Source of the DNA: Candidatus Bathyarchaeia archaeon
Lineage (GTDB): Archaea; Thermoproteota; Bathyarchaeia; 40CM-2-53-6; DTGE01
Direction: 5' to 3'
Length of the DNA: 41,745 bases
NCBI GenBank assembly: GCA_038852285.1
Contig: JAWCKG010000017.1
Location: 1-41,745, forward strand
The notes under the pieces: model-generated
Database searches by the model: none
Told to the model about the DNA's origin: nothing
Seen by the model: only the letters and a program-made list of their open reading frames with translations
Part shown: positions 4,238-11,064 of the stretch, one piece after another
Layout: every line of letters begins with the position of its first letter
How positions within the stretch are numbered: position 1 is the first letter of the stretch
Made by a program: the position numbers and the translations under genes

Positions 4238-4337
4238 TGGTGGACCGGGCGGGATTTGAACCCGCGGCCTCTCGGATGCGAGCCGAGCGTTTATACCGTT
4301 TTCCTACAGCGTTCATACCAGGCTGAACTACCGGCCC
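4238..4337 (-). tRNA. tRNA-Ala(CGC) with a 22-base intron near position 26/27
   Basis: The minus strand folds into a complete tRNA. The acceptor is GGGCCGG/CCGGTCC, with the G3-U70 pair that marks alanine tRNAs. The D stem is GTTC/GAAC, the anticodon arm CTCGG-CTCGCAT-CCGAG gives anticodon CGC, and the T arm is GCGGG-TTCAAAT-CCCGC. The discriminator is A and CCA is encoded at 4240-4238. Between the D stem and the anticodon stem there are 22 extra bases (about 4288-4309); removing them leaves a standard 75-base body. The ends are ambiguous because AACGCT repeats at both junctions. This is not the usual 37/38 site, so splicing would need the broad-specificity archaeal endonuclease. I could not draw a clean bulge-helix-bulge by eye. 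Confidence 0.85.
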
Positions 4338-8698: not shown

Positions 8699-8794
8699 TT
8701 TAAAAATAAGAGTCGTTAAAAGCCAACCAGGGATCTGATCTAAACGTAGATCTAGATCACCCAAGGTGATGAGGCTCACCTTAACCGCTTGACG
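8699..8794 (+). promoter_or_regulatory. Structured promoter/leader of the repeat-protein/DUF6062 operon
   Basis: A TATA-like GTTTAAAAATAAG at 8699-8710 predicts transcription from about 8730. The leader then holds GATCTA-AACG-TAGATC (8737-8752), a second TAGATC (8753-8758), and three alternating blocks: ATCACC (8756-8761), GGTGAT (8765-8770) and TCACCTT (8776-8782). The middle block can pair with either neighbour but not both, so two hairpins are mutually exclusive, and GGTGA is itself a ribosome-binding sequence. A seven-codon frame starts at ATG 8769 and ends with TGA at 8790-8792, overlapping the TTG at 8789. This looks like an attenuator-type leader or a multi-site operator; neither is proven. 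Confidence 0.4.
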
Positions 8795-9817
8795 ATGCGT
8801 CAGGCTAATAGCTTCTACCCATTTCAGCGGAGCATGACAGCCATGGACCTAAACACCACTCGCCTCCCACCTTCTGTGGTTGTTACTCGTCCAGTATCGG
8901 CGTCGGAAACCTCCAAATCGACGACTCGTATGGAAATGGAGAAACCCGTTTGGGAAACCTATGAACGTGAATCTAAGTTTGGCGAATGGATCCGAGTGGA
9001 TAAAGTCGTCCGCTATGTATTCATCAGGCAGAACGCGGATGGAGGATACTCGTTTGCTCAAGGAGGAGATTCCTCGGTTGAAGACACCTATTACGGCGTC
9101 AGGATACTAGGGATGCTGGGTGTGAAACCGCTTAACAAGGATCGCACGGTTGCCTTCTTGAAGAGGATGCAGCATGGGGACGGAAGCTATGACTCTGTGA
9201 AAGTGGCCTACTACGCAGTGAAGACGTTGAAGGAGTTAGGATCGAAGCCTGAAAGAGACGTCAAGAAATTCGTTTACTCCATGAGGCGGCGAGATGGAGG
9301 ATATGGAAGTCGTGAGGTGGATGTTGAAACCTCATCGGAGCTTGAAACCACTTACATCGCGCTTAAACTGTTAAAGCTTTTGGAGGCTCCTCTGAAACCA
9401 ACTACAACGAAATTTATTTTAAGCTTGAAGAATCCTGATGGAAGCTTCGGACACCGCGGATACTCTCGCCTCGCATCCACCTATCATGCGTTGGCGTGTC
9501 TAAAGCTCCTCGAATTCAACGGAAAATTCGAAGACACTCTTAGGTGGATTCTAGGATGCGAAAATCCCAAGGGCGGATTCGCTCGAAGCCCAGAGGTTCA
9601 CGACCCTTACTTCGTCGTCGACGACCTCTACTACGCGGTTAAAGCGTTAGAAATCCTCGGCGAACCTGCACGCTACCCAGTCCAACATTTGCGTTTAATC
9701 GGTAAATTCCAGAATCGAAATGGCGGATTTCGACGATCCATCTTCATAGGAATCTCCACGTTCGAATCTACCTACTATGCACTCTCCTCACTTAAAACAC
9801 TCTTGACGTGGATGTAA
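8795..9817 (+). CDS. Prenyltransferase/squalene-cyclase-type alpha/alpha repeat protein
   Basis: Contains six repeats of the alpha/alpha-barrel type seen in protein prenyltransferase beta subunits and squalene cyclases: a turn such as NADGGY, HGDGSY, RRDGGYG, NPDGSF, NPKGGF or NRNGGF, then a helix such as STYHALACLKLLE. The zinc ligands of real protein prenyltransferases (Asp-x-Cys and a later His) are not evident; the equivalent site reads VVDDLYYA with no Cys. The DxDD motif of squalene cyclases is also absent. A binding or structural role is therefore more likely than prenyl transfer. The roughly 50 residues before the first repeat are low-complexity, and the start is uncertain: TTG 8789, ATG 8795, ATG 8834 or ATG 8843. 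The stop TAA abuts the TTG of the next gene, so the two are surely cotranscribed. Confidence 0.7.
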   Translation: MRQANSFYPFQRSMTAMDLNTTRLPPSVVVTRPVSASETSKSTTRMEMEKPVWETYERESKFGEWIRVDKVVRYVFIRQNADGGYSFAQGGDSSVEDTYYGVRILGMLGVKPLNKDRTVAFLKRMQHGDGSYDSVKVAYYAVKTLKELGSKPERDVKKFVYSMRRRDGGYGSREVDVETSSELETTYIALKLLKLLEAPLKPTTTKFILSLKNPDGSFGHRGYSRLASTYHALACLKLLEFNGKFEDTLRWILGCENPKGGFARSPEVHDPYFVVDDLYYAVKALEILGEPARYPVQHLRLIGKFQNRNGGFRRSIFIGISTFESTYYALSSLKTLLTWM

Positions 9818-10669
9818 TTGAGCGATATTAAAAAAGACATCCTAACGATTAAGATTGACGAAGCAGTTAAAATGAATTATGAGTGTCCTTTTTGCTGGCT
9901 CTTAGAAAGGAGCGAAACAAGATATCTTGAAACGTTTTATTCTGAATATGTGAAGGATTCCTGGTATAGAGGTAAAGTCATCCGCTCACGCGGATTCTGC
10001 CGATACCATTTCTATCGCATGTTAGATTACGCTCTTAAACATTTTGAGAAGCTTGGATTGGCGCTGGTGCTTGAAAATATAGCGGAGGCGCGATTCAAAG
10101 ATCTGAAAGAATTATGCTTTGTTAGTCGTGACCTACCTCAGCTTAAATTGAAGGGGTCGCTGAGTCTTTTTACAAATAGTGGATCAAAGGATAGGACAAA
10201 AGCGGTAGCTAGATTCATGCTCCGCGTAAAATCGATGCTCAAAGATGGGAGTGTAGCTTGCCCTGCCTGCGATTATATGGAAGAAGACGATAAGATTAAC
10301 GTGGATACGCTTGCCTTCATGCTCACTACAAACACAAGTTTTCTGAAGAGATTCGAGGAAGGTAAAGGACTATGTCTACCTCATCTTCTCAGGCTGTTTG
10401 AATCTCTGAAAGCGTCATCTAAAATGGCCGTTCCCTCTTTAGCTGAGAAACTACTTTCGCTGGAACTGAAGAATTTCAGCCGTCTTGCCTCCGAACTCAA
10501 AGAGATTATCAGAAAACATGATTACCGGTTCCATGATGAGCCTTGGGGGTCTGAAATAGACGCGGTGGAAAGAACAGTCCTTAAGCTTATCGGATCATAT
10601 CAATTGGGCTTTATCCACGAAAAAGGAAGGTTGGAAGATTTGAACAGAACTACAAGTTTTGAGGGTTGA
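9818..10669 (+). CDS. DUF6062-type Cys/His protein, two-repeat form
   Basis: A soluble protein of unknown function resembling the DUF6062 family. Two similar halves each carry a CxxC followed by CxxH. Half one has CPFC (residues 23 and 26) and GFCRYH (61 and 64); half two has CPAC (148 and 151) and GLCLPH (186 and 189). Each set would make one four-ligand metal site, presumably zinc. Around the first CxxC the pattern E-x-RYLE-x-FY-x-EYV is typical of the family. Start TTG 9818 follows the previous stop TAA without a gap; ATG at codon 19 is possible but would cut close to the first CxxC. The coupling to the repeat-protein gene and to a second family member is the main functional clue. Confidence 0.68.
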   Translation: MSDIKKDILTIKIDEAVKMNYECPFCWLLERSETRYLETFYSEYVKDSWYRGKVIRSRGFCRYHFYRMLDYALKHFEKLGLALVLENIAEARFKDLKELCFVSRDLPQLKLKGSLSLFTNSGSKDRTKAVARFMLRVKSMLKDGSVACPACDYMEEDDKINVDTLAFMLTTNTSFLKRFEEGKGLCLPHLLRLFESLKASSKMAVPSLAEKLLSLELKNFSRLASELKEIIRKHDYRFHDEPWGSEIDAVERTVLKLIGSYQLGFIHEKGRLEDLNRTTSFEG

Positions 10670-10671
10670 AA

Positions 10672-11064
10672 ATGTGGGAAAAACTGAGCAGAATTCAATT
10701 CATTAAGACTCTAGACAGGGGAGAATGCCCAATCTGTAAACGGATAGAGGAGACTGAGAGCACGTATCTTGAGGAAATCCTCATGGAATTAGTAGATGAC
10801 GTGAAGTTCCGAGAGAAGTTGAAGAGCTCTCGTGGTCTTTGCTTACAACACTTCAAAAAAATGCTTCTATTGGTTCAGAAAAGGCCGGAACTTGACGGGA
10901 TCGGCGTATCAGACATCCTCAGAGATTTAGTTGAAGCCGAGATTCAAGATCTGCGTGAGGTTGAGAGAAAGCTTGCTGAAATACGGTTGAAGACATCGAT
11001 GCCTATGGATGAGGAATGGAGTAGAATTCTGAGAGCTTTAAAAAAGTTGTTTGGAAGAATTTGA
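10672..11064 (+). CDS. DUF6062-type Cys/His protein, single-repeat paralogue
   Basis: About 130 residues, equal to one half of the preceding protein. It has CPIC (residues 19 and 22 from this start) and GLCLQH (57 and 60), with the same ESTYLEEILMELVDD helix between. It would hold one metal site. GAGGG at 10661-10665 lies six bases before ATG 10672, which is preferred over the TTG at 10666 that overlaps the upstream stop. It is third in the operon with the repeat protein and the two-repeat paralogue. Duplication and fusion, or a split, within one operon is suggested; the proteins may form a hetero-complex. Confidence 0.65.
   Translation: MWEKLSRIQFIKTLDRGECPICKRIEETESTYLEEILMELVDDVKFREKLKSSRGLCLQHFKKMLLLVQKRPELDGIGVSDILRDLVEAEIQDLREVERKLAEIRLKTSMPMDEEWSRILRALKKLFGRI

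What the first reader, a model, noticed from the sequence alone, without database searches (positions are those of the whole stretch)
8699..11064. Three-gene unit: non-catalytic prenyltransferase-type repeat protein with two DUF6062-type Cys/His proteins
The repeat protein keeps the alpha/alpha barrel repeats but lacks evident prenyltransferase zinc ligands and the cyclase DxDD motif. It is followed without a gap by a protein with two C-x2-C...C-x2-H sites and then by a single-site paralogue. The tight spacing means the three are made together, and a paralogue of one and two repeats in one operon suggests a built complex. I know of no described system with this set, so it is the best candidate here for an undescribed module: a metal-dependent scaffold or ligand carrier.
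Basis: partly seen in the sequence, partly recalled or inferred. Interest (0 to 1): 0.68.

Follow-up and report, generated by a model that had tools for sequence, protein, structure and literature searches.

The report
Fluoride-switched operon without known exporter
A fluoride-sensing RNA switch sits directly in front of this archaeal three-gene unit, so the unit is probably part of how these archaea survive fluoride; its proteins are unlike any known fluoride exporter, and this genome shows none of the known exporters.

Summary
The three genes are real: a prenyltransferase-fold toroid ("PT"), a two-site DUF6062 protein and a one-site DUF6062 paralogue. The PT-DUF6062 pairing recurs: both genes occur in 13 other genomes of a 300-genome phylum sample and are neighbours in 11. 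PT lacks the protein-prenyltransferase zinc triad (0 of 47 relatives) and DxDD, but has its own invariant acidic residues.

A fluoride riboswitch (Rfam RF01734, 44.5 bits, cut-off 34) lies at 8756-8824, ten bases before the likely PT start. The same riboswitch precedes PT in 25 of 41 PT-bearing genomes, whether the next gene is DUF6062, one of two orphan families, or none. In this sample PT is the commonest gene found behind that riboswitch (26 of 65; CrcB 18). The 26 aptamers aligned covary, pseudoknot included.

The window genome has no detectable CrcB or CLC; 18 of 25 riboswitch+PT genomes lack both, against 3 of 29 riboswitch-only genomes. I read this as a fluoride-response operon whose effector is the toroid plus an exchangeable partner. 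Fluoride control is strongly supported; the biochemistry is inferred. No held paper links fluoride riboswitches to prenyltransferases, or mentions DUF6062.

The parts
8756..8824 (+). Fluoride riboswitch aptamer (RF01734, crcB motif) heading the operon
   Evidence: 44.5 bits, gathering cut-off 34, full model 1-64; the same element stands before PT or DUF6062 in 25 other aligned loci, with covariation in P1, P2 and the pseudoknot
8828..8836 (+). Shine-Dalgarno-like GGAG and the likely PT start codon ATG 8834 (or 8843), directly after the aptamer; GGAGC could pair with GCUUC of the aptamer 3' strand, so translation control is possible (inference)
   Evidence: sequence; in most related loci a start codon lies within about 5-25 bases of the aptamer end
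8834..9817 (+). PT: alpha/alpha-toroid of the prenyltransferase fold; conserved domain 8930-9814
   Evidence: PF00432 93 bits; AF2 model pLDDT 88.7; Foldseek best hits RabGGTase beta subunits, 1dce_B TM 0.76
9818..10669 (+). D2: two-site DUF6062 protein, all-helical, two C-x2-C...C-x2-H sites
   Evidence: PF19538 143 bits; AF2 pLDDT 83, no PDB fold match at E<=0.001; site conservation
10672..11064 (+). D1: one-site DUF6062 paralogue
   Evidence: PF19538 46 bits; 37% identity to repeat 1 of D2

Best explanation
A fluoride-response operon of Thermoproteota (mostly Bathyarchaeia-type) archaea. Supported here by sequence: a fluoride riboswitch heads the operon, and the same architecture is retained over deep divergence. 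Following established knowledge of this riboswitch class, fluoride should turn the genes on. Inferred: the prenyltransferase-fold toroid is the common effector, because it stays while its co-encoded partner changes (DUF6062, family A, family B or none). DUF6062 is a probably zinc-stabilised helical subunit that caps or positions the toroid. Inferred with low confidence (about 0.3): the toroid works in the cytosol on a ligand held by its invariant acidic residues, perhaps a metal-fluoride species or a fluoride-inhibited enzyme or metabolite, and so protects the cell by mitigation rather than export.
For: Riboswitch over the cut-off, with the full core. RF01734 directly upstream of PT in 25 of 41 PT genomes of 300, against 65 riboswitches in all; 26 at PT, 18 at CrcB. 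PT-riboswitch association Fisher p 1.4e-13. Also upstream of DUF6062 without PT in G160 (L031) and of DUF6062-then-PT in L094. Covariation: 98.8% of cells paired, 6 of 13 pairs with two-sided changes, 0 of 500 shuffles as high. Riboswitch-PT-CrcB in one unit in G225; CrcB and DUF190 after PT-DUF6062-MFS in L079. No CrcB and no CLC detected in the window genome (99% complete); 18 of 25 PT+riboswitch genomes lack both, against 3 of 29 riboswitch-only genomes, p 4e-6. Pairing with DUF6062 recurrent, p 1.4e-7, in several separate branches. Invariant D52, T53, E211, T281.
Against: No expression, knockout or binding data. PT genomes of Wolframiiraptor, Thermofilum-like and f16 archaea have no riboswitch over the cut-off at PT, so fluoride is not the regulator everywhere. 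The exporter comparison is confounded by ancestry; counted by family it is only p 0.058. Exporters outside CrcB/CLC cannot be excluded. Several PT loci have no recognised partner, so DUF6062 is not essential. DUF6062 outside PT loci usually has no riboswitch.
Confidence: 0.72

Rival explanations
1. Fluoride tolerance through lipid chemistry: the toroid binds or modifies isoprenoid chains (its fold class does) and so alters the archaeal membrane to slow HF entry.
For: Prenyltransferase/terpene-cyclase fold with aromatic TYY pairs kept in the repeats; HF permeation is the main entry route for fluoride (PMC11139923); archaeal lipids are isoprenoid (general knowledge).
Against: No DxDD in the ten members scanned, no zinc triad in any of 47; the conserved positions are acidic and polar; no lipid gene was recognised among the recurrent neighbours.
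Confidence: 0.2
2. Accessory to an exporter: PT-partner regulates or couples a transporter (MFS, P-type ATPase, CrcB) that does the fluoride removal.
For: MFS-type genes within 7 kb in 10 loci, one behind its own fluoride riboswitch (L122) and one 6 bases after the partner gene (L118); P-type ATPases near PT in four loci, one behind its own riboswitch (L037); CrcB directly after PT in G225.
Against: No MFS, ATPase or CrcB gene was recognised beside the unit in the window; most riboswitch+PT genomes have neither CrcB nor CLC. MFS genes are common, so some neighbours are chance.
Confidence: 0.2
3. One reading: a metal-dependent scaffold or ligand carrier with no tie to fluoride.
For: Eight conserved Cys/His ligands in DUF6062; toroid without known catalytic motifs; partner exchange fits a scaffold.
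Against: The riboswitch upstream in most PT genomes.
Confidence: 0.07
4. A protein prenyltransferase: PT as beta subunit and DUF6062 as an all-helical alpha-like subunit that supplies the metal.
For: Closest fold is RabGGTase beta; partner all-helical and Cys/His-rich.
Against: Zinc triad absent in all 47 relatives; DUF6062 is not matched by any alpha-subunit model in Pfam; partner often absent or unrelated.
Confidence: 0.03

Closest known systems
Fluoride riboswitch regulons (RF01734: crcB/Fluc, CLC-F, Na+/H+ antiporter, enolase, pyrophosphatase, formate hydrogen lyase, chorismate mutase, UspA)
   Same: Same riboswitch class heads the operon; CrcB shares the unit in one relative (G225).
   Different: The genes behind it belong to none of the families named in the papers read (PMC11139923, PMC2864571, PMC5533749); the window genome has no CrcB or CLC match.
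RabGGTase / FTase beta subunits (PF00432)
   Same: Same alpha/alpha-barrel fold, TM about 0.7-0.76 to RabGGTase beta.
   Different: Zn ligands D-x-C and H absent; no PPTA alpha subunit; own set of invariant acidic residues.
DUF6062 (PF19538)
   Same: D2 is a full-length member; both Cys/His sites kept.
   Different: Family has no known function; a recurrent toroid partner and a fluoride riboswitch were not found described.
ChrB N-terminal domain regulators (PF20229)
   Same: In six riboswitch-less PT genomes a stand-alone ChrB_N gene adjoins PT.
   Different: Known ChrB is a chromate sensor with a second domain (PMC3817168); here it may be a protein-based substitute for the riboswitch (inference).

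Membership tests
Fluoride riboswitch (RF01734) | Score over the curated cut-off across the full model | tested here: met
   44.5 bits against 34, positions 1-64
Fluoride riboswitch (RF01734) | P1, P2 and pseudoknot kept through compensatory change | tested here: met
   26 aptamers: 98.8% of cells paired, two-sided changes in 6 of 13 pairs including 3 of 5 pseudoknot pairs
Fluoride riboswitch (RF01734) | Binds fluoride and raises expression | not testable with these tools
   needs in-line probing or a reporter
Protein prenyltransferase beta subunit | Alpha/alpha-barrel fold | tested here: met
   Foldseek 6o60_B E 1e-8; 1dce_B TM 0.76
Protein prenyltransferase beta subunit | Zn ligands D-x-C and H | tested here: not met
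   R/A/D in the window; triad in 0 of 47
Protein prenyltransferase beta subunit | Partner alpha subunit of the PPTA type | tested here: not met
   the co-encoded partner matches DUF6062 and no PPTA model; PPTA was not searched for elsewhere in the genome
Class II terpene cyclase | DxDD acid motif | tested here: not met
   absent in all ten members scanned
DUF6062 (PF19538) | Curated cut-off and two C-x2-C...C-x2-H sites | tested here: met
   D2 143 bits; eight ligands in 26-28 of 28 relatives
Known fluoride exporters (CrcB/Fluc, CLC-F) | PF02537 or PF00654 match in the operon or genome | tested here: not met
   no match to either in the whole window genome; controls ring
Anti-phage defence | PADLOC model match | tested here: not met
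   none

The most novel reading that the evidence does not exclude
An export-independent fluoride-resistance system: a cytosolic toroid with exchangeable partner subunits, switched on by the fluoride riboswitch, that serves many archaea in place of Fluc/CLC-F exporters.
Probability: 0.35. Interest if true: 0.88.

Novelty: new variant of a known kind. Interest (0 to 1): 0.76.

Why it matters
Fluoride resistance is explained mainly by two exporter families plus spare copies of inhibited enzymes and pH control. Here, in an archaeal phylum sample, the commonest gene found behind the fluoride riboswitch is a toroid protein absent from the reviews read, mostly in genomes with no detectable exporter. 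It gives a physiological handle to DUF6062 and to two orphan families, and it makes the question "is there fluoride resistance without export?" directly testable by expressing two genes in an exporter-deleted laboratory strain.

Tried and rejected
Protein prenyltransferase and terpene cyclase: motifs absent. Solved homologues of DUF6062 or of family A: none convincing by fold or sequence. Defence system: no PADLOC match. Viral spread of PT: a viral-contig scan confirmed no relative; the DUF6062 alignment was too variable to scan with. Family A and B related to DUF6062 or to each other: not supported; family B and the L031-type helical family may be distantly related. Bacterial DUF6062: only two plasmid hits, neither next to a toroid gene. 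Sigma-70 and terminator scans: at chance level and not suited to archaea. Baker et al. 2012, the primary fluoride-riboswitch paper, is not held, so its supplementary gene list was not checked.

Full report
OBSERVATION. The three ORFs are present as described: a 342-codon Prenyltrans-fold frame (PT), a 283-aa DUF6062 protein with two C-x2-C...C-x2-H sites (D2), and a 132-aa one-site paralogue (D1). The PT-D2 junction has no gap, and D1 most likely starts two bases after D2. D1 is most like repeat 1 of D2 (37% identity). D1 is specific to this genome in the sample: no other genome of the phylum or order samples showed a one-site paralogue behind a two-site protein.

IS THE PAIR REAL? In 300 genomes of the phylum, DUF6062 occurs in 23 and PT in 41 (both counts include the window genome). 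Leaving that genome out, 13 have both (Fisher p 1.4e-7), and in 11 of the 13 the two genes are neighbours. A named-genome scan adds further pairs in Bathyarchaeota, Wolframiiraptor and Nitrososphaeria, one with the order reversed (L094). The trees show that the pairing is not one inherited block. The window PT falls beside PTs whose neighbour is an unrelated orphan family (A), while its DUF6062 groups with the DUF6062 of G160, which has no PT.

EXCHANGEABLE PARTNERS. PT is followed or preceded by one of three partners: DUF6062 (12 genomes, the window included), family A (about 218 aa, no Pfam match; adjacent in 9 of the 11 genomes that have it) or family B (about 153 aa, helical; adjacent in 9 of 9). 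No genome had two of them at one PT. This points to PT as the constant core.

PT SITE. The AF2 model (pLDDT 88.7) matches RabGGTase beta best (TM up to 0.76). The zinc ligands D238/C240/H290 correspond to R180/A182/D232 in the window; none of 47 relatives has the D-C-H triad, and the ten members scanned have no DxDD. Yet D52, T53, E211 and T281 are invariant, and E231 and E279 nearly so, across all partner classes. "Non-catalytic" is therefore unproven; "lacks the known chemistry" is correct.

THE MISSED ELEMENT. Rfam finds a fluoride riboswitch at 8756-8824 with 44.5 bits (cut-off 34), covering the whole aptamer. The TTG 8789 start lies inside it; the likely start is ATG 8834 or 8843, after GGAG. 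Across 300 genomes there are 65 such riboswitches over the cut-off; 26, in 25 genomes, lie 12 to 472 bases upstream of the PT match on the same strand, and 18 lie upstream of CrcB (CrcB was sought in 64 of the genomes, so 18 is a lower bound). All three partner classes and several partnerless PTs have it. It also precedes DUF6062 in G160, which lacks PT. Twenty-six aligned aptamers keep 98.8% of pairs with two-sided changes in P1, P2 and the pseudoknot, far above shuffles and slid controls. In G225 the unit reads riboswitch-PT-CrcB; in L079 CrcB and DUF190 follow PT-DUF6062-MFS.

EXPORTERS. The window genome (99% complete) has no CrcB and no CLC match, while the control genomes ring. Of 25 genomes with riboswitch-PT, 18 have neither; of 29 riboswitch genomes without PT, 3 have neither (p 4e-6). 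Counted by family the contrast weakens (p 0.058), so ancestry explains part of it.

REGULATOR SWAP. ChrB_N occurs in 7 of 300 genomes, and in 6 it adjoins PT; all six lack the riboswitch at PT. ChrB is a chromate-responsive DNA-binding regulator in Ochrobactrum, with mutations suggesting that the N-terminal half binds DNA (PMC3817168). A protein regulator in place of the riboswitch is an inference.

MECHANISM. Supported by sequence: fluoride-riboswitch control and a conserved module. Inferred: fluoride turns the genes on, PT is the effector, and DUF6062 is a zinc-stabilised partner. Least certain: what PT binds. I favour cytosolic mitigation over export, because neither protein resembles a transporter and most such genomes lack the known exporters. 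Lipid modification and an accessory role for an unrecognised transporter remain open.

NOVELTY. The held library has no paper with DUF6062 and none with both "fluoride riboswitch" and "prenyltransferase". The papers read list exporters, antiporters, phosphatases, enolase, formate hydrogen lyase, chorismate mutase, mutS and UspA (PMC11139923; PMC2864571; PMC5533749). The primary 2012 paper could not be read, so a mention in its supplement cannot be excluded.

Noticed in passing
L048:7640-8170 (-); L091:1734-2276 (-); G032, G056, G189, G206: Stand-alone ChrB_N genes adjoin PT in six riboswitch-less genomes, of only seven ChrB_N genomes in 300: a possible protein substitute for the fluoride riboswitch.
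   Followed up: partly
L115:7912-8568 (+) and relatives (alignment A5): Orphan family A (about 218 aa, no Pfam match) is almost always next to PT, after it in Bathyarchaeia-type genomes and before it in Thermofilum-like ones.
   Followed up: partly
L031:9252-10667 (+): Riboswitch, DUF6062 and a small helical gene form a unit without PT; relatives of the helical gene lie some kilobases after PT-DUF6062 in L037 and L078.
   Followed up: partly
L041:11206-11808; L045:8388-8989: DUF6062 is decaying in G027 and G043 (lost Cys ligands, truncated or split frame) while the PT beside it stays intact.
   Followed up: no
L037:6653-8517; L122:4743-6092: Further fluoride riboswitches stand before a P-type ATPase gene (G207, with six riboswitch matches in all, four over the cut-off) and before an MFS transporter (G190): possible new fluoride-stress genes.
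   Followed up: no
window 4238-4337 (-): Weak tRNA-Phe call with the unusual anticodon AAA.
   Followed up: no
L095:5968-6705: Bacterial DUF6062 in Monoglobus lies between a manganese efflux gene (MntP) and thymidine phosphorylase.
   Followed up: no
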